In this document: in pieces, positions 9,003 to 53,990 of the stretch
Position numbering within the stretch: the first letter of the stretch is position 1
Layout of the letters: each line of letters starts with the position of its first letter
Assembly: GCA_034401795.1 (NCBI GenBank)
Contig: CM067373.1
Span: forward strand, 35,437,443-35,501,442
Origin: Chaetoderma sp. LZ-2023a
Taxonomy: Eukaryota > Mollusca > Caudofoveata > Chaetodermatida > Chaetodermatidae
Length of the DNA: 64,000 nucleotides
Reading direction: 5' to 3'
Position numbers and translations under genes: made by a program
Notes under the pieces: generated by a model
The model's database searches: none
What the model saw: the letters and a program-made list of their open reading frames with translations, nothing else
What the model was told of the DNA's origin: nothing

Positions 9003-9465
9003 TGTTTATTAAATAATAAAGCCAATTCATACAACAATGCTTAGTCCGTCATCAGTTAAGCGTTCGTGACGGAACTTATCTACATCATTCATGATGTAAT
9101 TGATTATCACATCATCTTATGCGTCCAATAGTTGATTATCACGTCATATGATTGACGGATAACCTGACTTTTGAATTGATTTCAAAGTTGAAAGAGCGAA
9201 TAGACGGATACATTAAGCTCCGCACCACATTTTACGTGTCTTGGAATCAATTTTTATATGTTGAATGCTGAATTCGCAGAATCCCAATTTCAAGGTAACT
9301 ATACAGGTAAGCTGTTGAATATTTTGAAAACAATTTGACTGGGCAGCCACATCACCCAGTCAAATTAAACACAAAATATTCCGCAGATGAAATAGAGTTC
9401 ATTGGTACAATTTTTGTGTAAATATCAATCATCATCAATCACCCTTATAAAGTCATACAACTCAC
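9003..9465. repeat. MITE pieces and second hairpin A copy
   Basis: 9036-9165 carries blocks (CTTAGTCCGTCATCA, TTATCACGTCATATGATTGA) shared with MITE-like pieces near 13080, 24600, 29740, 30480 and 49380. 9308-9398 is a diverged hairpin A with a CCCAGTCAAATT arm. No coding sequence seen. Confidence 0.55.
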
Positions 9466-9595
9466 CTCATTCAAGTGATTATTTTTAATAGAAAATGATT
9501 TCAATTTCTGGAAGGCAGAAGATTTGTTACCAGTAGTAACATCATCAAACAGGATCTTGTGTATGCCATTATCGTTCAACAGCAATGTCTGCAAA
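9466..9595 (-). CDS. TBCE: TBCE exon: last leucine-rich repeat found here
   Basis: 130 nt, flanked by acceptor CTTACAG and donor GTGAGTTG. It starts with one base that completes a codon from the 10966-11141 exon and ends in phase 0. It reads LQTLLLNDNGIHKILF, a spacer, then FQKLKSFSIKNNHLNE. This follows the TBCE pattern LEQLILSDTGISSLHFP...FPSLKYLVVNDNQIS. It encodes part of the leucine-rich repeat region that contacts alpha-tubulin and other cofactors in tubulin folding. No following exon could be found to the left, so the remainder of the repeats and the ubiquitin-like domain probably lie beyond base 1. Confidence 0.85.
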
Positions 9596-10655
9596 CTGTA
9601 AGCAATAAGTTTTCATATTTTCAACAAGAATTTGGTAAAATTAATGATCTCCTATATCTTACTCATTATTGATAAACATGCTGAGATCAAGTTCATTCCT
9701 TAGTACAAATAGAATGTCGGGGAAAAAAGCAAATTCTATAACACGATTTATAGAATATTCTGTTGGATATTTTGAAATTAATATGACTGGAAGCCATCAA
9801 TGGATGCAATCTTGCAATGAGTAAGATGTTTGCGGAGCTGTAACTACTGGTTCTCAAATCTAAACACATGAAGCGAGCCCTGAATGTGCACTTAATAACT
9901 GTGCAGTTTCTGTTTAATCTCTATCAGCAAGAATTCTTTGAGGACTATTCTTCAATAAATTAATGTCTCTGAAGCTCTTATCACAGCTTGTGCTTGTTTT
10001 GGATCCAGAGCAGGCACACACTAATCTGGTAGCACTAGCACAAGACCGGCTTAAGCAATACATGATACGAGACGACAAATGACAATCAATACTTCCAATT
10101 CATCTGCAAGTACGTGAACATATTTCTCACCGTTCTTATGTTTATTTCTGTCACATGTGAAGGCAATTGGATGTTATGTATTGTTTCACTCGATGAGTTT
10201 GGTAAATACTTGTTAGCATATGAAAAATAGAAGTATGCATGAATGACACCAGTTTATCTGGCTGACATCGAACAGGTTCAGCTCAACGACCTAGAGGTGT
10301 GGCAAGAATTTATTAATGGGAACATCAGTGTCTATAAAACTCCCTTCCCAATGTGTTTTATTGGCATGGAACAGGTCATAGAACGCATTAACCATTCTGC
10401 TCTGAACGACAATAACCCTAATTACAAGAGCTGGTGATTGATTTTCCTAAGTACATCAAAACTGAGCGGCACATGGTTGCATACTTATCTGACACTAGCC
10501 CCACTAACACCACATACTCTCAATCGCACAGTATAGATTAACTGCATTCCTACAGACCCTCTTTACACAAGATAGCACATTGCTGAAATGAACAAATTGC
10601 TAAGCCTTCTTGAATCTCTCCCCGACCAGGCACAAAGTATAAATGTGTCTGTGTG
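9596..10655. other. TBCE intron, little recognisable
   Basis: Contains a half copy of hairpin family A near 9752-9790 (TGTTGGATATTTTGAAATTA). Otherwise I see no element ends, arrays or convincing coding sequence. Confidence 0.4.
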
Positions 10656-11605: not shown

Positions 11606-12498
11606 AATTTAAACTTAAATTATCGACAGGCAGAAAAACGACCACATTTGAGACTATAAATACATTGTAACTATAAACCGACAGTAGCAGCAGCTGAGCC
11701 TGTAAACACAGTGACAAACCAGTGTAAGTACTTTGTAACGTGCCAGATATCACATCACATTAGGCAAATTAGAGTATTTCTACTCTCCATGGTCATGATG
11801 TCAGTCAATCGCTGGGAACTAACCCATTTTCTACATTGATACTCATTTCTGGGTGGAGATAGACAATGATGAATAAATGAATTACCAATATTTCCAACAA
11901 TTATGAAACAGTACATATTGAGCCATGGATGCTGAGTATCCAGTCTGGAAGCCTCAGATCATTCTGCTACAGCACTATCTACTTGACAATGTATATTTTT
12001 AGAAAAGTATATAAACATTGAAAACAATCCTACAATATCTTGAAATAAAATGTATGCATGCATGCGTTTGTGTGCGTGTGTGTGTGTGTCTACGAATGTG
12101 CGTGTGCCTGAGTGTGTGTGCATGTTGTGTATATGAGAAGGCATGTACATGTAAGTTGCACTCTCACATGAATTATTACTCATAGAAAGCACACCTGGTT
12201 CCATGTGATGCCGATTCTGTTTACACTAAGACAGGTGAGCTGGCTGAAGGCATGTGACAGATCTGATGGTGCTGCAGGTATTGCTAAGTGACTATCACTG
12301 GAAAGACATAGAAATGAGTGATAAGAGGTACAGAACTGGAATAATATTTAGATAAAGATCTAGCTTATATTTCCAGGGACGTCTTGGAGTGTTATTTTTC
12401 AAAACAATTATCAACAAAACTGCTTGAGTCAAATTTCAGACTGGAAAGTCCTATAGACAATATGAGGTATGCCTAACTACTAATGCGTGCAGTCCTGT
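11606..12498. other. TBCE intron with a TG microsatellite
   Basis: 12057-12125 is a TG/CG-rich microsatellite (TGTGCGTGTGTGTGTGTG core). The rest shows no recognisable gene or element. Confidence 0.5.
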
Positions 12499-13545: not shown

Positions 13546-14530
13546 TCCGCAAATGGCGCATAATACCCGCCGTGATGACAAACTAATAAATGACAGCTAT
13601 CAGAAAATATAAATTTTTTCCTCAGACCAGTAATCCAAGTGTCAAAGCGATCTGCTAAACAGTCAAGGAGGCATCGTTCGGAAACCGATTTTCAAGATGG
13701 CTGCCGCTGACTGGTGGCCATATTGGATTTTGGATTATCGTAAATTGTGATAGGTTTCTTCATCAGACATATTCCAACGACCCTAGGATGTGATCCGATA
13801 AATGGTAACAGAGATATCATCCAGAAACCAACTTTCAAGATGGCAGCCCGTGGCTGGTGGCCATCTTGGATTTTGGATCAGTGTCAATTTCGATAAGTTT
13901 CTTCCTCAGACCTAGTCCAACCACTCTATGAAGTTTCAAAGCGATCCGATAAACGGTAACGGAGTTATCATCCATAAACCAATTTTCAAGATGGCCACCG
14001 GTGGCTGGCGGCCATCTTGGATTTTGGATCATTGTCGTTTTCGACAGCCTTCTTCAGCACACCTAGTCCAACCACTCTATGAAGTTTCAAAGTGATGCGA
14101 TAAACGGTAACAGAGTTATTATCCGGAAACCAATTTTCAAGATGGCTACCGGTGGCTGGCGGCCATCTTCGATTTCGGATCATAGTCAATTTTGATAAGT
14201 TTCTTCCCCAGACCTAGTCTAACCACTCCATGAAGTTTCAAAGCGATCCGATAAACGGTAACAGAGTTATTAACGAACCATCCTATGAAGTTTCACTGCG
14301 ATCCGACACACGGTAACGGAGTTATCATCCGGAAACCAATTTTCAAGATGGCCACCGGTGGCTGGCGGCCATCTTGGATTTCAGATCATCGTAGATTTCG
14401 ATAGTTTTCTTCCCAAGACCAAGTCCAACCACCATATGAAGTTTCAATGTGATCCGACAAATGGTAAAGGAGTTATCATCCGGAAACCACTCTGCCGCCC
14501 ACATGCCCGCCCGGACGGATGGCGGCATTA
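13541..14530. repeat. 165-bp tandem array with AAGATGGC hairpins
   Basis: About 5.5 units. Each holds AGTTTCAAAGCGATCCGAT, AACGGTAACAGAGTTATCAT, CCGGAAACCAATTTTCAAG and ATGGCCACCGGTGGCTGGCG next to its near-inverse GCCATCTTGGAT. It starts with AACAAGAGCTCCGCAAATGG. The same family forms the array at 25816-27665. Confidence 0.85.
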
Positions 14531-14844: not shown

Positions 14845-15033
14845 CTGACATTTAGCTTGCTCAGGTGTGGCAACTGTTCTGTGATACGCGCGACTTCTGC
14901 CCATGATCCAAGCAAACATTTGGAGATATCCAGCTCTCGTATGTTTGGACAATGTAAGTGTATCTCATCAACGGGGCCAGCGCTGTAGATGTATGTATCA
15001 CGTACACCCACATCTAATAACTGCTCTAAATGA
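14845..15033 (-). CDS. TBCE: TBCE exon: first leucine-rich repeats
   Basis: 189 nt between acceptor ACCTGGCAG and donor GTACTG. One base completes the codon from the 22567 exon, and two bases are left over at the end. Reads SHLEQLLDVGVRDTYIYSAG, then PVDEIHLHCPNIRELDISKC, then LLGSWAEVARITEQLPHLSK and LNV. The match to TBCE is strong and co-linear ([44 protein letters not shown]). These are the opening leucine-rich repeats after the linker. The intron 5' of it is almost entirely a DIRS insertion, whose nearer end lies only 110 bp from this exon. Confidence 0.93.
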
Positions 15034-17100: not shown

Positions 17101-19279
17101 TGTGAAGGGCCTTGCCCTGGAAGATAATATCGTCCATCAGAGGCAGAGGAACCGGATTGCAGACCAGAAGGTCCAGCAGATCCGTATACCATGATCGGCT
17201 TGGCCAATCCGGGGCGATCAGAAGCACTTGGCATTCCTCTTGTCTGATTTTCTGAAGAATTTTTGGAATCAGGATTGCTGGAGGGAATGCGTATGCATAC
17301 ATTCTCCCCCAGCTGATAGCTAACGCATCTGTTGCGAAAGCGCTTGGATCCGGAATCGGAGAGACGTACGTCGTCATCTTCGCATTCTTCTTCGTTGCGA
17401 ACAAATCGATGTTGGGTTTCCCCCAATGGTCGAACAGACGATCCGCCACACATTGATTTAGTTGCCATTCCGTGGGTAAAACACTCATCCTTCGGCTCAA
17501 TGAGTCTGCTAGCAGGTTTAACCTTCCCGGAATATGAACTGCTTTCAAGGTAATCTGGTGATCCAGACACCAACAAAGCAGTTTCCATGTCATCATACAG
17601 AGACTGGGCGACTTCGTTCCGCCCTGGCGGTTTATGTAAGTCACAACTGTTGAGTTGTCTGAACGAATAAGAACAATCTTGCCCTGAACTTTCTGTAAGA
17701 AATGTTCCAGGCCCAGGACTACTGCTTTTAGCTCCTGTAGATTTATATGTTCCTTTGACTGTTCCAGATTCCAAAGCCCTGATATCGTGGACTCTTCCAG
17801 GCAAGCTCCCCAGCCCTCCATCGATGCATCTGTATATACAGTCACCTGAGGGTGGGGAGGGGTTAGCAAAACCCCCGGCAAGAGATTCTCTGTATTCAAC
17901 CACCATTGCAGGTGGTGAATCAGAGGCGCCAACACTGACACATTCGAGTCCAGCGAACCTGTACTCTGGGTCCATTGTGTCATGAGAAATAACTGGATCG
18001 GCCGCCTGCGTAAGGCGGCCTGAGGAATGACTGGTTCCAATGAAACCATCAACCCCAGCATTCTCAAGTAAACCCGTGCCAGGACATGACGACTGTCGCA
18101 CACTGACTGAATTAATGAGATGAGTTTCTGAACTCTCTCCTGAGTAGGATAAACATATCCTGTCTCTAGATCGAAGAACATCCCCAGGTAAACAAACTTC
18201 TGGGATGGAGTCAGCTCTGATTTTGGGAAATTGATCATCCAGCCTAAGTCTGTGAGAGTTTTCAAAACAATCTCCAGATTGGCCGACAAACTTTCCCGGG
18301 TGTGCGCTTTCAACAGCCAGTCGTCTATGTACGTGTGGACTGCTATGCTTCTCCTGCGGAGGTATGCTGTGATCGCAAGAACCACACGGGTGAAAACCCG
18401 AGGAGCCGTGGAAATTCCGAAGGGCAACACCCTGAATTCCCACTGTCTGCCCTGGAATGCAAATCTCAGGAAGCGACAGAAACTCCCGTGGATGGGGATG
18501 TGGAAATAAGCGTCCTTCAAATCTATCGACGCCGTCCACATCCCCCTCTCCAACCCCGCCAACACCGAGCGCACCGTTTCCATCTTGAAACTGGGCGTCT
18601 CGATGAACTTGTTCAATGGCTTGAGGTTGAGAATCGGTCTCCACCCTCCGGTGCGTTTTGTTACTAAGAACAGGGTTGAATAGAAGCCCGGACACCTTTG
18701 TGCCGGCTGAATAGCTCCTTTTTGTACGAGGGAATTTATCTCCTCCTCGATACACAACCTTTGCTCTGGATCTCTCGGAATGGGAGTCCAGACTGGCGCT
18801 AGAGACAGTCGCGACGGCGGGCCTGTCATCCACTCTGGATGATACCCGACGGAAAGCCATCGCAAGACTAAACGGTCCTGAGTTAACCGTTCCCACTCTT
18901 GCATTTGGTCGGCTAGCCGGCCTCCCACCGGTCCACCTAGGGACCGCGGTGGACACGAGGCATGCAAGAGCGGCACTGTCTCCGTCGCCATACACACCGG
19001 AGTGGTTCTTACCGCGGTAAGCGTCCTGTCAGGACCGATAACCACGCCCAGATCCTCGCGCGCCCCGCCCCGCCCCGCGCGCACCTTGGTGCGCGGGCGG
19101 CTGCCTGGCTGACGGCGCCTGAGGAACCTGCGCCCCCCTCGCTGCTGGCCGAATCGCACGCGGCCGAGGCCGACGCTGCGACGGTGGCTGGCCTCTGACT
19201 TGGCCAGCACCACCTCGAGCCTGCAGGGGACGATACGCAGGGGCCGCGGCGCGAACGTTAGCACGACGCAGCACCTCAA
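16898..19279 (-). CDS. DIRS reverse transcriptase, RNase H and DIRS-specific domain, copy 2
   Basis: About 793 codons. Reverse transcriptase fingers begin near residue 170 (LVQKGAIQPAQ..FYSTLFLVTKRTGGWRPILN). The catalytic motif is YIDDWLLKAH, and FPKSELTPSQKFVYLG follows. RNase H follows with VTVYTDASMEGWGACLEE, LQELKAVVLGLE, RSDNSTVVTYINRQGG and NLLADSLSR. Then comes the DIRS-typical segment PNIDLFATKKN..PDPSAFATDAL..YAFPPAILI..LLIAPDWPSRSW, often described as methyltransferase-like. Its first ~250 nt overlap the end of gag. Confidence 0.92.
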   Translation of the reverse strand: MRCCVVLTFAPRPLRIVPCRLEVVLAKSEASHRRSVGLGRVRFGQQRGGRRFLRRRQPGSRPRTKVRAGRGGAREDLGVVIGPDRTLTAVRTTPVCMATETVPLLHASCPPRSLGGPVGGRLADQMQEWERLTQDRLVLRWLSVGYHPEWMTGPPSRLSLAPVWTPIPRDPEQRLCIEEEINSLVQKGAIQPAQRCPGFYSTLFLVTKRTGGWRPILNLKPLNKFIETPSFKMETVRSVLAGLERGMWTASIDLKDAYFHIPIHGSFCRFLRFAFQGRQWEFRVLPFGISTAPRVFTRVVLAITAYLRRRSIAVHTYIDDWLLKAHTRESLSANLEIVLKTLTDLGWMINFPKSELTPSQKFVYLGMFFDLETGYVYPTQERVQKLISLIQSVCDSRHVLARVYLRMLGLMVSLEPVIPQAALRRRPIQLFLMTQWTQSTGSLDSNVSVLAPLIHHLQWWLNTENLLPGVLLTPPHPQVTVYTDASMEGWGACLEESTISGLWNLEQSKEHINLQELKAVVLGLEHFLQKVQGKIVLIRSDNSTVVTYINRQGGTKSPSLCMMTWKLLCWCLDHQITLKAVHIPGRLNLLADSLSRRMSVLPTEWQLNQCVADRLFDHWGKPNIDLFATKKNAKMTTYVSPIPDPSAFATDALAISWGRMYAYAFPPAILIPKILQKIRQEECQVLLIAPDWPSRSWYTDLLDLLVCNPVPLPLMDDIIFQGKALHNNPSMFRLTAWMLSRNLELRRAFLSKQPCLWPKPGGGQPPEHIIIKSTDLQNGAQKDVLIQWIHLFK

Positions 19280-21113
19280 ACTGCTCGCGCAGCGCCCTCT
19301 GGTTATTCACCAGGGTGACCGTCTCCTGGAGGTGGCGACATCCCTCACCTCCAAAAAGACCAGGACCCGTCATAGGCGTACGGAGTAGCCTATTGTACAG
19401 GTCCTGAGACGGGCACAGATTGTCCAGGGCAAACGTGCGTCTTGCCCGGACACTCCTGGTCACCGCCCGAGTCATACAGTCCAGCGCCAGGTTAATACCA
19501 TCCTGGATGGCTCGCTGGACCGTGACCGGACTTGGCTGGCACGATGCGGATGCCGTTACTACCCCCTGTAACAGCTGGGAGACGTGGGACAGAGCGGCAA
19601 TCGAAGCCCTCCCACTCTCCTCCGCATCACGCAACGCGGTATTCGCCGAACGCAACGCGTTCGAGCACAAGACCCCCGTGTCAGAACGGGAGCCTGGCCG
19701 CGCATCCTCACCCAAAGCCGCGCGGTCATCCACGCTGGGCTTGGGTACCACACCGTACCGCTGGTAGTCCAGGGGCACGATGCGACAACGCCTGGCCACC
19801 TCGCGAGGGGCCTTCGCGAGACGTCCACTCGAGTTAATGGACGACTCCGCCGCCTTGAACATGTCAACGACATGCTCCGCCAGCGGCAGAGAAGGCATAG
19901 CGTTAGCAGTCGGTTTCCCAGCTAACCACGGCCTGTGGTCACGCTGGCTAGCCGACTGCTCCACGGGCAGATCAGGCCTAACGCTCACCAACCACTCGCA
20001 AGCGTCAGACCAATCCTCCTCCGTGGCTAACTGCGAGCGCTCTACAAGACGGGGTCCTTCGTCTTCCTCCTGAGCGCAAGCAGCAGAGCTTGACGGCGGG
20101 TACGCTGATACACCTGGCAAGCCAGGGAAAACATGCGGGCCTGACAGCACCGGCATGACAATATCACTGGTTTGACCAGGAGCAGGCACCGTGGCAGAGC
20201 GCGGGGTATATACCGCCCCACCACGGGCCCGGCCAGCACCAGCAACACCCTCGGCAAGCCGAGGTATGCGGTACCGCTGGCCATCAGCAGCGCCCTGGGC
20301 CACCACCTGAGCCGCGGACTCTACTCCAGGGTGAGTAAAACCGTGGAAGAAGCCGCCTGTATTCCCCACGAGGGGTGCACAAACGTCTTCATCCATGTCC
20401 ACGTCGTCAGACGGCGACCCTAGCAGGTAATCCTCATCACCCTGGTCAGAAAGATTAGACCCCGGGTCAGCAAAGAGAGCTAACCCGGGCTGACCAGGAA
20501 CGGTGCCATAGGAGGTACTGGCCACCGCGGCGTGCGGATACCCCTGGACTGATAAGCAGCCCGCGGGTTCCAGCGACAACCGTCCACGGTCCCCTCTCGG
20601 CGCGGCAATAAGCCTGCTGCCAGGGTCGTGGAACGCCCCCTCTAATGGGGCCACCTCTGAATCGTCGAACAACGGAAGCGGTCTAAGGAAAACCGATCCA
20701 GAGGCGGGGATTACCTGCTCCGAAGCCGATGATGAGGACAGTAAAGGATTTGGTTCAGGAAGCATGCCACGAAGCAACCCTGGAACCAAATCCTTTATCG
20801 TCCTCTTCATCTCTCCCAACATCTCGGTCCGGAAGGCCTCCATATCCACCGCGGACGAGACCTTCCCCTTACCCTTCCTACTTACAACCTCTCGTTTCCG
20901 CTTCTTCTTCTTCTCCTCCTCTACCACCTTGTCCGTCGCCTGTAAGCAGCACAAGAATTCGGACATTAACTCGCCCCCCCAGTGCTTACATATGTCACAA
21001 TTAGCCAAGGGACCACAAGGGCTACATTGATAGCAAAGATGAGGCCAGAACTTATCATGTAGATAACGTCCACAGGACGCGCAACCCGGTCCCTGAAACA
21101 GGGCAAAGGACAA
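19029..21113 (-). CDS. DIRS gag-like protein, copy 2
   Basis: About 694 codons, close in sequence to the copy 1 protein (433-2562). It has the same Cys-rich start (CASCGRYLHDKFWPHLCYQC), basic KKKKRKREVV stretch, acidic segment SPSDDVDMDEDVCAPL and C-terminal GARGAGRGARGSGRGYRS tail. The outer start is non-ATG; an in-frame Met follows at GELMSEFLCC. Long GC-rich plus-strand ORFs opposite it are shadows. Confidence 0.85.
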   Translation of the reverse strand: MSFALFQGPGCASCGRYLHDKFWPHLCYQCSPCGPLANCDICKHWGGELMSEFLCCLQATDKVVEEEKKKKRKREVVSRKGKGKVSSAVDMEAFRTEMLGEMKRTIKDLVPGLLRGMLPEPNPLLSSSSASEQVIPASGSVFLRPLPLFDDSEVAPLEGAFHDPGSRLIAAPRGDRGRLSLEPAGCLSVQGYPHAAVASTSYGTVPGQPGLALFADPGSNLSDQGDEDYLLGSPSDDVDMDEDVCAPLVGNTGGFFHGFTHPGVESAAQVVAQGAADGQRYRIPRLAEGVAGAGRARGGAVYTPRSATVPAPGQTSDIVMPVLSGPHVFPGLPGVSAYPPSSSAACAQEEDEGPRLVERSQLATEEDWSDACEWLVSVRPDLPVEQSASQRDHRPWLAGKPTANAMPSLPLAEHVVDMFKAAESSINSSGRLAKAPREVARRCRIVPLDYQRYGVVPKPSVDDRAALGEDARPGSRSDTGVLCSNALRSANTALRDAEESGRASIAALSHVSQLLQGVVTASASCQPSPVTVQRAIQDGINLALDCMTRAVTRSVRARRTFALDNLCPSQDLYNRLLRTPMTGPGLFGGEGCRHLQETVTLVNNQRALREQFEVLRRANVRAAAPAYRPLQARGGAGQVRGQPPSQRRPRPRAIRPAARGAQVPQAPSARQPPAHQGARGAGRGARGSGRGYRS

Positions 21114-21982
21114 GGAGTATGAGCAAACTAGTTAAGCTTAGACACTCAAACCAACTCAAAGAGAAGGAAAACGATCATAAAGATCAATATACATCAGAAA
21201 CCAGCATAGCGACTTGAATTGCTGATAAATACATAGCCAGGCTGATTATGACGTCATTAATCCCGTGACAGGAAAAAATCGATCCCAACAAAACATCCAA
21301 GTGCAAGGACGAATTGTATGCTGAATGGATACGTCGACTACACAACCATCAGATACATATAGATAACTCTTTTCTGGCAAAAATGTTAATTATCTCCCTT
21401 TGCTTACTATAATTAACATCACCACATTATCAATAACTAGATACCTGACACTTTGTATAGACAAACCATCCAACGTGACGAACCGGAGAACTCCACCATC
21501 TGCACGCCTCTTAACTCTCTCCACCTCATGGGGAAGGAATTGGATCAAGAGGGCAAAGTGAGAAGACCTTTATACTAGGCCTCCAACTCACTGGACATAA
21601 TTTTTCATTTGGTTAGATAACCTAACAGTGTTAGTAGGAAATGGAACCATGGTGGAGAGAAAACTAACTCTCTGCTGCTGTGATGCCACCACCTAGCATC
21701 ATACAGACCTGTGGACATAAACAGAAAGAGAAATTAGCCTTAGGTAGCACCGAGTTGACATAAACCAACTAACCAAGGCGCTTATCACGGTAAACGCGAG
21801 TCCCGGAAACACAATACACCGGGAAGAAAACTCGCTAATTTTACTAGAAGTCACCTGATTTAAAGGTCCTAAGTCCTCCTTTGGCGAAGTGTTCCTTCCT
21901 GCCATCCAAATCAGTGACTATCACTCCAAAATAACACCACTTAAACAGTTTAAGAGTAAGAAAAAGCTTATGCACAAAAAGA
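21114..21982 (-). other. DIRS copy 2 leader region
   Basis: Matches 2563-3387. Non-coding in both copies. Confidence 0.7.
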
Positions 21983-22566: not shown

Positions 22567-22767
22567 CTTTGTCTTTCATTGACCCGTACTGCACCAACAA
22601 CTTCTATTGTTGTATGCTGCTGGTTGTCACCCAGAATAAACATGGCATCCTTGTCAATACCACCAGAATCATCCATGGATCTGCCATAACGATCACGAAG
22701 TGCGGATAAAAATGTCATACCAAACTCAACACGGTTTGGCCGAATGAATGAACCAGAAGAAGGGCCA
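22567..22767 (-). CDS. TBCE: TBCE exon: end of CAP-Gly domain and linker
   Basis: 201 nt between acceptor AATTTACAG and donor GTAATG. One base completes the codon begun by AT of the 28977 exon, and it ends with two bases. Reads GPSSGSFIRPNRVEFGMTFL, SALRDRYGRSMDDSGGIDKD, AMFILGDNQQHTTIEVVGAV and RVNERQ. GSFIRPNRVEFG is the end of the CAP-Gly fold as in human TBCE (GSFIRPNKVNFG). The following ALRDRY corresponds to the start of the linker helix. CAP-Gly of TBCE binds the C-terminal EEY tail of alpha-tubulin. Confidence 0.93.
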
Positions 22768-25815: not shown

Positions 25816-27665
25816 AAAGGAGCTCAGCAAACAGTGGATACCCCGCCATGATGACAAACCAATGAAAGAGAGCTACATGTATCAGAAAATAGCAATTTCT
25901 TCCACAAACCTAGACCAGTCATCCTATGAAGTTTGAAAGTGATCCGCTAAACAGTCATGGAGGTATAATCCGGAAACCAATATTCAAGATGGCCGCCGGT
26001 GGATCACGGTCATATTGGGTTTTGGATCATCTAAATATGGATAAGTTACTTCCTTAGACATAGTCCAGTCATCCCATGAAACTTCAAAGCGATCCGTTGA
26101 ACAGAAATGGATTTATCGCACGGAAACCAATATTCAAGATGGCCGCTAGTCACTGGTGGCCATCTTGGATTTAGGAACATCGTCGATCTTGAGAGGCTTC
26201 TTCTCCATACGTAGTCCAAGCACTCTATGAAGTTTCAAAGTGATCTACTAAACGGTAATGGAGGTATCATCCGGAAACCAATATTCTAAATGGCCGCCCT
26301 TGGCTGGCAGCCATCTTGGATTTCAGATCATCGACCATTTCGATAGGTTTATTCCCCATATCTAGACCAACCACCCTATGAGGTTTTAAAGCAATCCGAT
26401 AAATGGTAACAGAAATATCATCGGGAAACCCATTTTCAAGATGCCTGACTGTGGCTGGTGGCCATCTTTAATCACTGATCATCAAAGATTTTGATATGTT
26501 TCTTCCCCAGACATAGTCCATCCACCATATGAAGTTTCAAAGCAATCCGATAAACGGTAACAGAGTTATCATCCAGAAACCTATTTTCCAGATGGCTGCC
26601 GGTGGTCTCCCTGACAATGACCTGACAGTTTACAACTTCCAGGAATAAAATAAACAAACGTCAAAATTTGATAATTTTTTAGAAACCTATTTTCCAGATG
26701 GCTGCCGGTGGCTGGCGCACACATTGGATTTCGGATCGTCACTTGTGATAAGTTTCTTCCCCAGACCTAGTCCAACCACCTTATGAAGATCCGATATATC
26801 ATCCCCAAATTTTCCAGATGGCCACTGATGGCTGACGGCCATCTTGGATTTCAAATTATTGTCAATTCCCCAGTCCAACCACTGTATGAAGTGTTAGAGA
26901 TCTGATAAACAGTAACAGAGTTATCATCCGGAAACCAATTTTCAAGATGGCCACAGGTGTCTGGCAGCCATATTGGATTTTGGATCATCGAAAATTTTGA
27001 TAGCCTTCTTCCCCAGACCTAGTCCACCTACCATATTAAGTTTCAAAAGAATCCGATAAACGGTAACAGAGTTATCATCCAGAAACCTATTTTCAAGACG
27101 GCTGCCGGTGGTTGGCGCCCACATTGGATTTCGGATCATCGTCACATTTGATAGGTTTCTTCCCCAGTCCAACCACCTCATGAAGATCTGATAAACAGTA
27201 ACAGAGTTATCATCCAGATATTTTCCAGATGGCCACTGATGGCTGGCAGCCATCTTGGATTTCAGATTATCGTCAATTTTGATAGGTTTCTTCCCCAGAC
27301 CTAGTCTAACCACTGTATGAAGTTTCAGAGATCCGATAAACCGTAACAGAGTTATCATCCGGAAACCATTTTCAAGATGGCCACAGGTGTCTGGCTGCCA
27401 TGTATTGGATTTCGGATTATTGTTGATTTCGATAGGTTTCTTCCTCAAACCTAGTCCAATTATCATATGAAGTTTCAAAGCGATCTGATATTTACAGCAA
27501 CAGTTATCATTCGGAAACAAATTTTCAAGATGGCCACTGATGGCCATCTTGGATTTGGGATCATCGTCAATTTTTATAGGTTTCTTTCCCAGCACAGGGC
27601 CAACCACCCTATGAACAAAGAGATCCGATAAACAGTTATCATCCGGGAATCAATTTTCAATATGC
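25816..27665. repeat. 165-bp tandem array with AAGATGGC hairpins, second block
   Basis: About eleven diverged units of the same family as 13541-14530, again introduced by GGAGCTCAGCAAA. Minus-strand ORFs up to 221 codons arise from the repeat and are not genes. One unit is interrupted by a foreign 74-bp segment at 26604-26677. Confidence 0.85.
26575..26711. repeat. Templated 74-bp insertion flanked by a 31-bp duplication
   Basis: The 31-bp block starting AGAAACCTATTTTCCAGATG occurs at 26575-26605 and again at 26681-26711. Between them, 26604-26677 matches 24301-24374 exactly (starts GGTCTCCCTGACAATGACCT). Confidence 0.9.
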
Positions 27666-27677
27666 CCATCGGTGTTT

Positions 27678-28990
27678 GGCAGCTGCTGTTACTTACATTG
27701 TACTAAAGTACTGTATTCCACGGCAGCTGCTGTTATTTACATTGTACTCAAGTACTGCATTCTATGGCAGCTGCTGCTACTTACATTACATTGTACTAAA
27801 GTACTGTATTCCATGGCAACCGCTGCTACTTACATTGTTATAAAATACTGTATTCCACGGCAGGTGCTGCTACTTACATTGTACCAAAGTACTGTATTCA
27901 ATGGCAGCTGCTGCTACTTACATTGTTATAAAGTACTGTATTCCATGGCAGCTGCTGCTACTTACATTGTTATAAAGTATTGTATTCCATGGCAGCTGCT
28001 GCTACTTACATTGTTATAAAGTACTGTATTCCATGGCAGCTGCTGCTACTTACATTGTTATAAAGTACTGTATTCCACGGCAGCTGCTGCTACTTACATT
28101 GTACCAAAGTACTGTATTCAATGGCAGCTGCTGCTACTTACATTGTTATAAAGTACTGTATTCCACGGCAGCTGCTGCTACTTACATTGTACCAAAGTAC
28201 TGTATTCAATGGCAGTTGCTACTACTTACATCGTTATAAACTACTGTATTCCATGGCAGCTGCTGCTACTTACATTGTACCAAAGTACTGTATTCAATGG
28301 CCGATGCTGCTACTTACATTGTTATAAAGTACTGTATTCCATGGCAGCTGCTGCTACCTACATTGTTATAAAGTACTGTATTCCATGGCAGCTGCTGCTA
28401 CTTACATTGTTATAAAGTACTGTATTCCATGGCAGCTGCCGCTCCTTACATTGTACTAAAGTACTGTATTCCATGGCAGCTGCTGTTACTTATATTGCAC
28501 TAAAGTACTGTATTCCATGGCAACTGCTGCTACTTACATTGTTATAAAGTACTGTATTCCACGGCAGCTGCTGCTACTTACATTGTACCAAAGTACTGTA
28601 TTCAATGGCAGCTGCTGCCACTTACATTGTTATAAAGTACTGTATTCCATGGCAGCTGCTGCTACTTACATTGTTATAAAGTACTGTATTCCATGGCAGC
28701 TGCTGCTACTTACATTGTTATAAAGTACTGTATCCCATGGCAGCTGCTGCTACTTACATTGTTATAAAGTACTGTATTCCATGGCAGCTGCTGCTACTTA
28801 CATTGTACTAAAGTACTGTATTCCATGGCAGCTGCTCTACTTACATTGCACTAAAGTACTGAATTCCATGGCAGTTGCTGCTACTTACATTGTACTAAAG
28901 TACTGTATTCTATGGCAGCTGCTGCTACTTACATTGTACTAAAGTACTGTATTCCATGGCAGCTGCTCCTACTTACATTGTGGTAAAGTA
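27678..28990. repeat. 44-bp minisatellite made of TBCE splice-donor copies
   Basis: About 30 units. On the minus strand each reads ATGGAATACAGTACTTT, then three to four variable bases (ATA, GTA or CCA), ACAAT, GTAAGTAGCAGC and AGCTGCC. The last unit toward 28990 overlaps the TBCE exon 28977-29061. Its first 25 bases are the exon's 3' end and the GTAAGT is that exon's donor. Units alternate in places between TTATAAAG and TACCAAAG forms, giving an 88-bp higher order. Nearly all units keep GTAAGT; a few have GTAAAT, GTAGGT or a 5-bp insertion. Confidence 0.95.
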
Positions 28991-29061
28991 CTGTATTCCA
29001 TTGTATGTTCCATCATGCTTACCACGCTCTGATCTGTCCCAGTCCACTCCAAGCCAGAGAC
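28977..29061 (-). CDS. TBCE: TBCE exon: core of CAP-Gly domain
   Basis: 85 nt between acceptor GTTGTAG and donor GTAAGTAG. It follows a one-base overhang and ends with AT. Reads [20 protein letters not shown] then GIQYFTT. WLGVDWD and the GKHDG signature define a CAP-Gly domain, and the order matches TBCE WLGVEWDNPERGKHDG. GKHDG makes the groove that holds the tubulin tail. Its 3' end forms the first unit of the 44-bp array, so the true donor is followed by many look-alikes. The codon after the exon would read TAA, so only the first donor keeps the frame open. Confidence 0.95.
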
Positions 29062-30466: not shown

Positions 30467-30815
30467 AATGGACCTTTCCAGTTTATGATCCATCCATCAT
30501 ATGACATCATCATCAACTATGTGACATGTAGGATGACTTCATAATCAATTAAGGTATGAATGACTCGTTTAGTCCGTTTTAAACGCTTAACAGTCCGACA
30601 TGCTGTATGAGTTGTATGTCTGTCTTTACTATTTAATAAACATAATCGTCATTGCCGAATATTTTGAAACTAATTTGAGAGAGCTGCTGCTGCTTACCTT
30701 TTTCTGAAAATTGATAATCAGGGAGTTCAGGGATCAATCGATCCCAACACGAGCGAGGTGCGGGTGGAGATTAGCTAGTGATGGGTGTGGCATAGCTAAA
30801 ACTGGAAAGGTCCAT
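30467..30815. mobile_element. MITE with AATGGACCTTTCCAGTTTAT termini
   Basis: Left end AATGGACCTTTCCAGTTTAT; right end AAAACTGGAAAGGTCCATT, its inverse. It contains CATCATATGACATCATC and part of a hairpin A. No coding capacity. Right-end fragments of the family occur near 49440-49475. Confidence 0.7.
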
Positions 30816-50012: not shown

Positions 50013-50150
50013 TTTAAATTAAACGAGCACAATAACATGTAGAACATAATGCCATGGTCTGCTTAGTACAGCTCAGATATAGCATGCAGACCATACTGCC
50101 AGACTGTACTTAGTACAACTCGGAAATAACATGCAGACCATACTGCCAGA

Positions 50151-51233
50151 TAGGCTGGCGCGATTTTTCGATTTAATCGTGAAGTTCGATTTATTTTTAA
50201 AATCACCATTTTTACGATGTAATTGATGGAAAATCGGAAAATTGTCTGAAATTTCATGTTTTTTTTAAATCTGAGGTATGTACTTTTCCATCGCATTTTA
50301 TCAGTACATGAGTACAATTATAATCGATTCACGCCAGTGCTCATTTTGTTTATATCCCGCCGTGCTATGCACGTGTAGAATAATTACTAATCATAACACA
50401 AAGCGCTACAATAAACAAGCTAACATTAGCGAGGTAACAGCTTTGTCGTTGAGAAAACCAGCTAGTTACTCCGTCGAATCGCCATATAATTTTCTTTCTT
50501 TCGCTGCAGACCAGGCAATCAGTGAGCATACTTCTTTTTAATTCTAGAGTTAGCAATTTCAGGTGGTGTAATAATTTTTCCCTTTTGATTCGGTTGTCAT
50601 GTCAAATTAAAGAAAATAAAGCAACAGCATTCCAGATTGTTTGATTTTGAAATGTGCGTTCTGTTGATTACTCTTAAATGTAAATAGTACATTCTGAAAG
50701 CAACTATAAACTGCACTATAGGACGAGTTTATGCCGTTACACTTATACCTACTCAAGGCTACCGTCCTATGTATGTGGATTGCGCAGTATCTCCCCGGGT
50801 ACTAATATTAGCATCTTCGCGTTACTCCGGTAATGACCTAAACTCGTCCTACAAAGGGAGGATATAAGCGGAAGCTGATACATCATGTAATTAATTTTTT
50901 CTCGGCGACATTTTATCTCAAATTTTGATGAAATAAATATTGTTTATTAAACTATGCGCAATATGTAGGTGGCCCCAATTAATAATTTCACTCCTGCGAT
51001 GATGGATATAAGGTATACATTAAGCATAGACGTAGGATGGTTAGAATACGTCGCATGAAAATCTGTTCCAATTTCGTGCTATTTTTGTATCATTTATTTC
51101 AACTTTTTCTAGAAACAAGTCACGTTACCTCGGTTTATACTTTTGGGAATTTGGACCTACGATTTAATCGAAAATCGCAATTTTTTTTACAAAATCGATC
51201 GCGATGTTTCAAAGCAAAAATCGTGCAAGCCTA
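50151..51233. mobile_element. hAT-like non-autonomous element inside the minisatellite
   Basis: Ends TAGGCTGGCGCGATTTTTCG and, inverted, TAGGCTTGCACGATTTTTGC. An exact 8-bp duplication CTGCCAGA (50143-50150 and 51234-51241) comes from the array unit itself. Subterminal ATCG-rich blocks (CGATTTAATCG) occur at both ends. No transposase. Confidence 0.9.
50721..50849. mobile_element. 129-bp MITE nested in the hAT element
   Basis: Starts GGACGAGTTTATGCCGTTAC and ends with the inverse-like GTAATGACCTAAACTCGTCC. It is flanked by TA on both sides, as expected for Tc1/mariner- or PIF-like target preference. Confidence 0.7.
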
Positions 51234-52209
51234 CTGCCAGACTCTGCTTAGTACAGCTCAGATATAACATGCAGACCATACTGCCAGGCTCTGCTTAGTA
51301 CAGCTCATAAATAACATGCAGACCATACTGCCAGGCTCTGCTTAGTACAGCTCATAAATAACATGCAGACCATACTGCCAGGCTCTGCTTAGTACAGCTC
51401 AAAAATAACATGCAGACCATACTGCCAGGCTCTGCTTAGTACAGCTCAGAAGTAACATGCAGACCATACTGCCAGGCTCTGCTTAGTACAGCTCAGATAT
51501 AACATGCAGACCATACTTCCAGGCTCTGCTTAGTACAGCTCAGAAGTAACATGCAGACCATACTGCCAGGCTCTGCTTAGTACAGCTCAGAAATAACATG
51601 CAGACCATACTTCCAGGCTCTGCTTAGTACAGCTCATAAATAACATGCAGACCATACTGCCAGGCTCTGCTTAGTACAGCTCATAAATAACATGCAGACC
51701 ATACTGCCAGGCTCTGCTTAGTACAGCTAAAAAATAACATGCAGACCATACTGCCAGACTCTGCTTAGTACAGCTCAGAAATAACATGCAGACCATACTG
51801 CCAGGCTCTGCTTAGTACAGCTCAGAAGTAACATGCAGACCATACTGCCAGGCTCCGCTTAGTACAGCTCAGAAATAACATGCAGACCATACTGCCAGGC
51901 TCTGCTTAGTACAGCTCAGATATAACATGCAGACCATACTGCCAGGCTCTGCTTAGTACAGCTCAGAAATAACATGCAGACCATACTGCCAGGCTCTGCT
52001 TAGTACAGCTCAGATATAACATGCAGACCATGCTGCCAGGCTATGCTTAGTACAGCTCAGAAATAACATGCAGACCATACTTCCAGGCTCTGCTTAGTAC
52101 AGCTCAGAAATAACATGCAGACCATACTGCCAGGCTCTGCTTAGTACAACTCATAAATAACACGCAGACCATACTGCCAGGCTCTGCTTAGTACAGCTCA
52201 GAAATAACA

Positions 52210-53990
52210 GTGTACTGGTGAATATTTTTAGCCCAATGCAGCAATGTTTTCCAATCCAATTATGCCCAAAATATTCAACAGGACATTTCTTACATCATGT
52301 TCAAAATTTTACTAACTAATATGTTTCTTTTTAGCTCACCTGACCTGAAAGGCCAAATGAGCTTTATGCTCTGGCGACCGTCCTTCGTCCATCTGTCGTC
52401 CGTCAACCTTTTCCTTAAACGATTTCTTGTGAAGAACCACTCACTTAAATTATATTTGGCAGGAAGCATCCTGAGGGCATAGAGCTCCAAGTTTGTTCAA
52501 ACGAGGCTAGTTGGTGAATTTCGCCGGTGGCCATCTCAGATTTTGGCCGATTTTTAGAAACATCTTTAAAAATCTTCTTAAAACGCTTGAGGGATCGATT
52601 CAAAACTCATGAAACACAATTTAGGTCAACAGCTGAACTAAGTTTGTTCAGGGGAACTTGAATAGGAAAATGCTTTAGTGGCCATCTTGGATGACCTAGT
52701 TTTCATGAAAACAACTTCTCCAGAACCGCTGAACGGATTGACCCCAAGTTTGGATGATATGATTAGGGACTAAGGCCCATAAAAATTTGTTCAACGGAGG
52801 CTGATTCGTAAAAAAAACATGGCTGCCATGGACCAATTGGATCTTTTATTTGATGGTTGTATATAGGCTTTTTGATATGTTGATTTCAATTTTCAACTTT
52901 CGAAACTGTCAGAAAAATGGTTTGGCGGCCATCATGGATCTTTTTTCCCGTCAAAAAGTCCCATACTAAAGCAATAGGAAATTTAAAATGTCTTCTCAAG
53001 AACCACGGGGCTGATTTCAATTATGTTTGGCAGGAAGCACTCTTAAGGCATAGGGATCTAAGCTTGTTCAAAGGAAGCTGATCGGCCAATTTGGCTGGCA
53101 GTCATCTTGCATTTTGCACGGTTTTTAGAAATGTCTAAAAATCTTCTCTAAAAACGGGGGATCGATTCAAAACTTATGACACATCATCTTGGGCAACAGC
53201 TTAACCAAGTTTGTTCAAGTAAATTTTGATTGGCCAAATGTTTCAGCAGCCATCTTGGATGACCAATTTTTTGCAAAAACCGATTCCAGAACCGCTGAAT
53301 GGATCGGGCTGAAATTTGGGAAATATGATCAGGCATTGATGGCTATTAGATTTGTTCAAAGGAAGTTAATATGTCGCAAAACATGGTCATTGTGGCCCTA
53401 TCAAAATGTAGCGTGTTTGACAGCCATATTGGATTTTTAATTTGATGGATTTTGAAGCCAAAATTCGTTTTATATAGGTTCTTGGAATGCTGATTTCAAA
53501 TTTGGCACTTTCGAAACTGTCAGAAATAATGGATTGGTGGTCATTTTGGATTTTTTAAACCGGCAAAAACTCCCAAAGTAAAGCAATGGGAAATTGAAAA
53601 TATCGCCTCGAGAAACATTTGACCGATTTTAACCAAATTTGGTAGGACATTCTGTTTGTGGGTCTGGCCAAATCTTAATGTTCTACATAAAGGTGATGAC
53701 ATTTCTAGTGACAGTATTCTACATAAAGGTGATGACATTTCTAGTGACAGTATTCTACGTAAAGGTGATGACATTTCTAGTGACAGTATTCTACATAAAG
53801 GTGATGACATTTCTAGTGACAGTATTCTACGTAAAGGTGATGACATTTCTAGTGACAGTATTCTACATAAAGGTGATGACCTTTCTAGTGACAGTATTCT
53901 ACATAAAGGTGATGACATTTCTAGTTGAAATACCGATGGTCCACATGGTCCAGGTAAGTGATACACGCCCCTTGGGCCTCTTGTTTTGGA
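52210..53990. repeat. Dispersed AGCTCACCTG...GGGCCTCTTGTT repeat
   Basis: 52212-52283 is a decayed hairpin A (CAAAATATTCAACAGGAC). 52331-53986 starts TTTTTAGCTCACCTGACCTG and ends CCCCTTGGGCCTCTTGTTTT, the reverse orientation of 6940-7852. It includes two cycles of the AAGATGG-type blocks. Confidence 0.7.
53681..53925. repeat. 36-bp minisatellite, about seven units
   Basis: Unit TTCTACATAAAGGTGATGAC followed by ATTTCTAGTGACAGTA. 36 is a multiple of three and no frame has a stop, so ORFs open on both strands; none looks like a protein gene. Confidence 0.9.

What the first reader, a model, noticed from the sequence alone, without database searches (positions are those of the whole stretch)
27678..29061. 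Minisatellite built from about 30 copies of a TBCE exon end plus its splice donor
Seen: the 44-bp unit on the minus strand contains the last 25 coding bases of the CAP-Gly exon (ATGGAATACAGTACTTTACC-ACAAT) and GTAAGTAGCAGCAGCTGCC from the intron. The array starts inside the exon, so the exon's own boundary is unit 1. Nearly every unit keeps GTAAGT. Just past the true junction the frame reads TAA, so use of any later donor would put a stop in the message. Inference: the boundary was tandemly amplified, leaving one productive donor and about 29 decoys that may compete for U1, produce unproductive isoforms, or tune TBCE level with copy number. I know of no described case of a splice-donor minisatellite like this.
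Basis: partly seen in the sequence, partly recalled or inferred. Interest (0 to 1): 0.85.

Follow-up and report, generated by a model that had tools for sequence, protein, structure and literature searches.

The report
Minisatellite of a TBCE splice donor
A stretch covering the end of one exon of the TBCE gene and the start of its intron has been copied about 30 times in a row, leaving many spare splice signals; arrays of this kind are already known in human genes, and nothing found here shows that the spare signals are used or preserved.

Summary
A 44-bp minisatellite (30 units, 27677-29001, minus strand) starts inside a TBCE CAP-Gly exon; each unit carries copies of the exon's last 25 bases plus 19 intron bases. 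The unit-1 donor (exon end 28977) is the productive one on comparative grounds: joined to the next exon it gives an ungapped match to human TBCE across the junction, E 4.9e-18. Of 30 units, 29 keep a donor GT and 26 keep GTAAGT. Each of the 28 later GT donors would give the same truncated product.

The belief that no such case is described is wrong: human CBS, ABCA7 and IFI6 have repeats that contain a splice donor.

Donor retention shows no clear excess over other parts of the unit, so selection is not seen. Folding leaves unit 1 more open than nearly all decoys, but arrays of shuffled units behave alike. Most likely this is a near-neutral amplification with some unproductive splicing. In ABCA7, array length changed skipping of the next exon, not use of the second donor. 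Transcripts, copy-number variation and species could not be examined.

The parts
28977..29061 (-). TBCE CAP-Gly exon, 85 nt, phase 1 in, phase 2 out
   Evidence: with the next exon: human TBCE 9m1k_E E 4.9e-18, Pfam CAP_GLY E 7.9e-13
28958..29001 (-). unit 1: last 25 exon bases plus first 19 intron bases; holds the productive donor (GTAAGT from 28976 down)
27677..29001 (-). 44-bp minisatellite, 30 units
   Evidence: TRF; unit list
27691..28932 (-). 28 later units' donor GT sites (25 with intact GTAAGT); unit 12 reads AT
22567..22767 (-). next TBCE exon, 201 nt, phase 2 to 2 (skipping it would keep the frame)
14845..15033 (-). TBCE exon, 189 nt, leucine-rich repeat region
   Evidence: tblastn E 1.3e-10 to a recalled human TBCE; boundaries
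12195..12297 (-). TBCE exon, 103 nt (weak match, E 0.11, but boundaries and frame fit)
9460..9609 (-). TBCE-like coding segment, boundaries not settled
   Evidence: tblastn E 2.1e-4
26942..27683 (.). 150-bp satellite repeats that abut the intron-side end of the array
   Evidence: blastn matches of the flank to other satellite copies reach 27683, array matches begin at 27677; TRF rows

Best explanation
The last 25 bases of a TBCE exon and the first 19 bases of its intron were duplicated in tandem and grew to 30 units, with later rounds of expansion inside the array. Unit 1, the only unit attached to the reading frame, still supplies the donor that makes full TBCE. The later donors are copies carried along. 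They are mostly silent; when one is used the message gains a stop codon at once and gives a protein cut off inside the CAP-Gly domain, or is degraded. If the array affects the gene, the likeliest ways are a small loss of productive message and, as in ABCA7, more skipping of the next exon. Shown: array, exon identity, frame, donor count, stop, lack of clear excess conservation. Inferred: which donor is used in cells, degradation, near-neutrality.
For: Array and unit structure. Productive unit-1 donor: the codon split AT|T restores frame and an ungapped alignment to human TBCE over the junction; three following introns keep frame too. The 28 later GT donors all give one product ending ...YFTTM. 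Donor hexamer: 4 distinct variants, and 25 of 44 circular hexamers of the unit have as few; 25 of 29 later units intact against 24.8 expected from the mutation rate outside five subtype columns. Edge units (2-5, 12-13, 28-30) share one subtype and inner units others, as expected from internal expansion. Unit 1 donor is more open than 25 of 25 intact decoys in four of five folding settings and than 24 of 25 in the fifth. In ABCA7 the second-unit donor is used at 2 +/- 1%.
Against: With the overall mismatch rate (5.8%, subtype columns included) only 20.3 of 29 intact hexamers are expected against 25 seen, so weak constraint cannot be excluded. The later donors score the same as unit 1 with a recalled vertebrate matrix, so nothing in the donor itself favours unit 1. 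The openness of unit 1 is largely generic: unit 1 exceeds the decoy median in 55 of 60 arrays of shuffled units, and the decoys are no more closed than in those (36 of 60 as low or lower). No transcripts were seen.
Confidence: 0.65

Rival explanations
1. The array is a regulatory brake: copy number of decoy donors sets the share of unproductive TBCE message, by competition for U1 or for pairing with the next acceptor.
For: 25 intact decoys with scores equal to unit 1, each adding an immediate stop; the title of Lievers 2001 links the CBS 31-bp VNTR to reduced CBS activity (reference entry).
Against: No clear excess conservation of the donors. In ABCA7 use of the second donor did not follow array length.
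Confidence: 0.12
2. The array acts through length and bound proteins or U1, not through use of the donors: longer arrays make skipping of the next exon more likely, or bound U1 guards the intron from early polyadenylation.
For: ABCA7: exon 19 skipping rose with VNTR length (p = 3.24e-13). Here the next exon is 201 nt and its loss keeps the frame but removes the end of the CAP-Gly domain. The U1 guarding idea is recalled and rests on no call.
Against: No transcript evidence; this array (1.3 kb) is short beside the expanded ABCA7 alleles (up to about 10.7 kb).
Confidence: 0.13
3. Assembly artefact or a non-functional TBCE copy.
For: No reads or second assembly could be consulted; the window's whole genome is not held; TBCE segments for the N-terminus and for human residues 222-271 and 324-527 were not convincingly found.
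Against: Units differ in an ordered way (pairwise identity 0.75-1.0, mean 0.91), which a simple assembly stutter would not make; four exons keep splice sites and frame.
Confidence: 0.07

Closest known systems
Human CBS 31-bp VNTR, c.1444_1467+7(16_21), exon 13-intron 13
   Same: The unit is an exon end plus the start of the intron: by its name 24 exonic and 7 intronic bases, so each unit carries a donor; 16-21 copies (passages of PMC2630376; table of PMC1395315).
   Different: 44-bp unit here with 25 exonic and 19 intronic bases and 30 units; another gene and organism; CBS is known to vary in copy number, which is untested here.
Human ABCA7 25-bp VNTR, intron 18
   Same: Includes the donor of exon 18 and repeats it in each unit; use of the second unit's donor breaks the frame (PMC5954066, passages and sections 21-22).
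   Different: The ABCA7 unit begins at the GT, whereas 25 of the 44 bases here are copies of exon sequence; ABCA7 alleles run from about 12 to 427 units.
Human IFI6 (6-16) minisatellite, Turri et al. 1995
   Same: A minisatellite described by its title as providing multiple splice donor sites; two downstream units are used as donors, giving three mRNAs (passage of PMC4526556; title also).
   Different: The IFI6 unit is 12 nt (recalled) and so keeps the frame; here every later donor truncates the protein. The paper itself is not held.

Membership tests
Minisatellite or VNTR spanning a splice donor (CBS, ABCA7, IFI6 type) | Tandem array of a unit of about 10-100 bp | tested here: met
   44 bp, 30.0 copies
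Minisatellite or VNTR spanning a splice donor (CBS, ABCA7, IFI6 type) | First unit contains the gene's own donor | tested here: met
   Comparative: frame and ungapped match to human TBCE across the junction; not seen in transcripts
Minisatellite or VNTR spanning a splice donor (CBS, ABCA7, IFI6 type) | Later units keep donor-like sequence | tested here: met
   28 of 29 later units keep GT, 25 keep GTAAGT
Minisatellite or VNTR spanning a splice donor (CBS, ABCA7, IFI6 type) | Later donors are used in mRNA | not testable with these tools
   No transcript data
Minisatellite or VNTR spanning a splice donor (CBS, ABCA7, IFI6 type) | Copy number varies between individuals | not testable with these tools
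   One window, no other individuals; genome not held
Regulatory decoy-donor array under selection | Donor hexamer better conserved than the rest of the unit | tested here: inconclusive
   4 variants, 25 of 44 circular hexamers have as few; 25 intact of 29 against 24.8 expected without subtype columns and 20.3 with them
Regulatory decoy-donor array under selection | RNA structure of the unit specially hides the decoys | tested here: not met
   Decoy openness as low or lower in 36 of 60 arrays of shuffled units; z -1.64, 5 of 100 shuffles fold as well over the first eight units

The most novel reading that the evidence does not exclude
A self-made rheostat: 25 decoy donors as strong as the true one, each leading to the same truncated message, make the output of an essential tubulin chaperone depend on the copy number of a fast-changing minisatellite, with the exon-attached unit kept usable because it differs from the repeats and stays more open in the RNA.
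Probability: 0.08. Interest if true: 0.65.

Novelty: new member of a known kind. Interest (0 to 1): 0.33.

Why it matters
The locus offers a natural test of how the splicing machinery picks one donor among about 26 equal copies spaced 44 bases apart, in a gene needed for tubulin folding. With the CBS, ABCA7 and IFI6 cases it suggests that amplification of exon ends into minisatellites recurs in unrelated genes and perhaps in distant animals. It is not a new kind of element.

Tried and rejected
Tried without result: own-genome search (no genome held); TBCE relatives in genome contigs (18 pattern matches, none a relative); the unit in viral contigs (0); first TBCE exon in the window by motif (none) and by tblastn (best E 0.092 at 60926-60891, which I did not accept because it lies among taaccggt-like repeats). 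One piece of the unit matched outside the array at 30700 with up to 4 substitutions; on reading it I took it as chance. Single-unit and two-unit DNA folding: z between 0.52 and -1.82, no strong hairpin.

Considered and rejected: special structural masking of decoys (shuffled units do the same); donor retention as a sign of selection (no clear excess); the reverse origin, an old repeat recruited as exon end, because the exon end encodes residues that align without gap to human TBCE. MIR137 VNTR and the C. elegans CeRep25B minisatellite were looked at and are less close: neither is shown in those passages as a repeated native donor. Papers on choice between competing donors (passages only) give no simple rule that would settle which unit is used.

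Full report
Observation. The array lies on the minus strand at 27677-29001: period 44, 30.0 copies, 89% matches. I split it into 30 units, 28 of 44 bp, one of 43 and one of 49. Mean pairwise identity is 0.91, range 0.75 to 1.0. Unit 1 runs 29001-28958; its first 25 bases are the last bases of an exon that ends at 28977 and the other 19 are intron. A 23-base piece of the unit is found 28 times with up to 3 mismatches against 0 in shuffles. Outside the array, one of four 22-base pieces had one loose match (30700), taken as chance.

Gene. The exon (29061-28977, 85 nt) and the next one (22767-22567, 201 nt) together match human TBCE at E 4.9e-18 without a gap at the junction and the Pfam CAP_GLY model at 7.9e-13. 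Two more exons (15033-14845, 12297-12195) continue in frame with AG acceptors and GT donors. The donor of unit 1 splits a codon as AT|T, the phase that the next exon needs. This is comparative evidence for its use; no transcript was seen. TBCE segments for the N-terminus and for human residues 222-271 and 324-527 were not convincingly found, so the gene model is partial.

Donors. Of the 30 units 29 keep a donor GT and 26 keep GTAAGT; unit 12 reads AT, and units 13, 15 and 29 are weakened. With recalled vertebrate base frequencies 25 sites in the array score as high as or higher than the average unit-1 level (unit 1 itself included), 18.8 per kb, against 22 of 3579 GTs on the same strand outside it, 0.35 per kb. 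The exon also holds a strong unused-looking site at 29022, GTG|GTAAGC. Use of any of the 28 later GT donors gives the same peptide end...YFTTM followed by a stop.

Are the decoys preserved? The donor hexamer has 4 distinct variants; 25 of the 44 circular hexamers of the unit have as few or fewer, and 16 of 44 have at least as many intact copies as its 26. Among units 2-30, 25 are intact. The expectation is 24.8 if the five subtype columns are left out and 20.3 if they are kept. I read this as no clear excess, but the second figure leaves room for weak constraint.

Folding. In five window settings the unit-1 donor is more open than all 25 intact decoys in four and than 24 in one (about 0.26 against a median near 0.06 in the middle setting). 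Replacing unit 1 by a later unit closes it (0.025). But when the repeat is shuffled around the donor, unit 1 still exceeds the decoy median in 55 of 60 arrays, and the decoys are as closed or more closed than the real ones in 36 of 60. So the effect is mainly that repeats pair with each other and unit 1 does so less; it is weak support at best. Over the first eight units the fold has z -1.64, with 5 of 100 shuffles as stable.

Origin. The intron-side end of the array meets 150-bp satellite repeats that recur at 13.6-14.5 kb and 25.9-27.5 kb; the flank's matches to other satellite copies reach 27683 and so overlap the array's last bases by about 7. Collapsing the array to unit 1 plus this flank gives an ordinary exon end and intron. 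Units 2-5, 12-13 and 28-30 share one subtype and the others lie inside, which fits a first expansion followed by internal rounds. This history is inference.

Known cases. Passages of PMC2630376 name the CBS repeat c.1444_1467+7(16_21), which by its notation is 24 exonic plus 7 intronic bases in 16 to 21 copies; PMC1395315 places it at exon 13-intron 13. PMC5954066 (passages and sections 21-22) describes a 25-bp ABCA7 repeat that includes the exon 18 donor, about 12 to 427 units; the second unit's donor is used at 2 +/- 1% whatever the length, while exon 19 skipping rises with length and expression falls. [quoted passage not shown] The originals of Turri and Lievers are not held.

Mechanism. 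The best reading is near-neutral amplification: unit 1 makes TBCE, later donors are mostly silent, and their occasional use wastes message. The ABCA7 case suggests looking first for skipping of the next exon, which here is 201 nt and keeps the frame while removing the end of the CAP-Gly domain. A selected brake remains possible (about 0.08 to 0.12).

Limits. The species is unknown to me: an animal gene with many satellites; a mollusc is a guess from recall. One haplotype, no reads, no transcripts, no relatives. Ten literature searches in an open-licence library bear on novelty; they found precedents and no paper on this TBCE array, which does not show that none exists.

Noticed in passing
50151-51233: A 1083-bp insertion with similar inverted ends and an identical 8-bp flank CTGCCAGA on both sides (50143-50150, 51234-51241) splits a 47-bp minisatellite (50031-50150 and 51232-52209); it looks like a hAT-type DNA transposon (type from recall).
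   Followed up: partly
1-2700 and 18597-21298: Two copies of one element, 97.0% identical over 2702 bp; nearby frames hold a reverse transcriptase (RVT_1 E 2.6e-22) and weak integrase-like matches below their cut-offs, as in DIRS-like retrotransposons (recalled).
   Followed up: partly
13637-14476 and 25896-27544: Arrays of a 150-bp satellite in two TBCE introns; one abuts the minisatellite.
   Followed up: partly
29022: A strong donor-like site GTG|GTAAGC inside the TBCE exon, upstream of the real donor, predicted closed by folding.
   Followed up: no
53681-53925: A 36-bp minisatellite, 6.8 copies, 97% matches.
   Followed up: no
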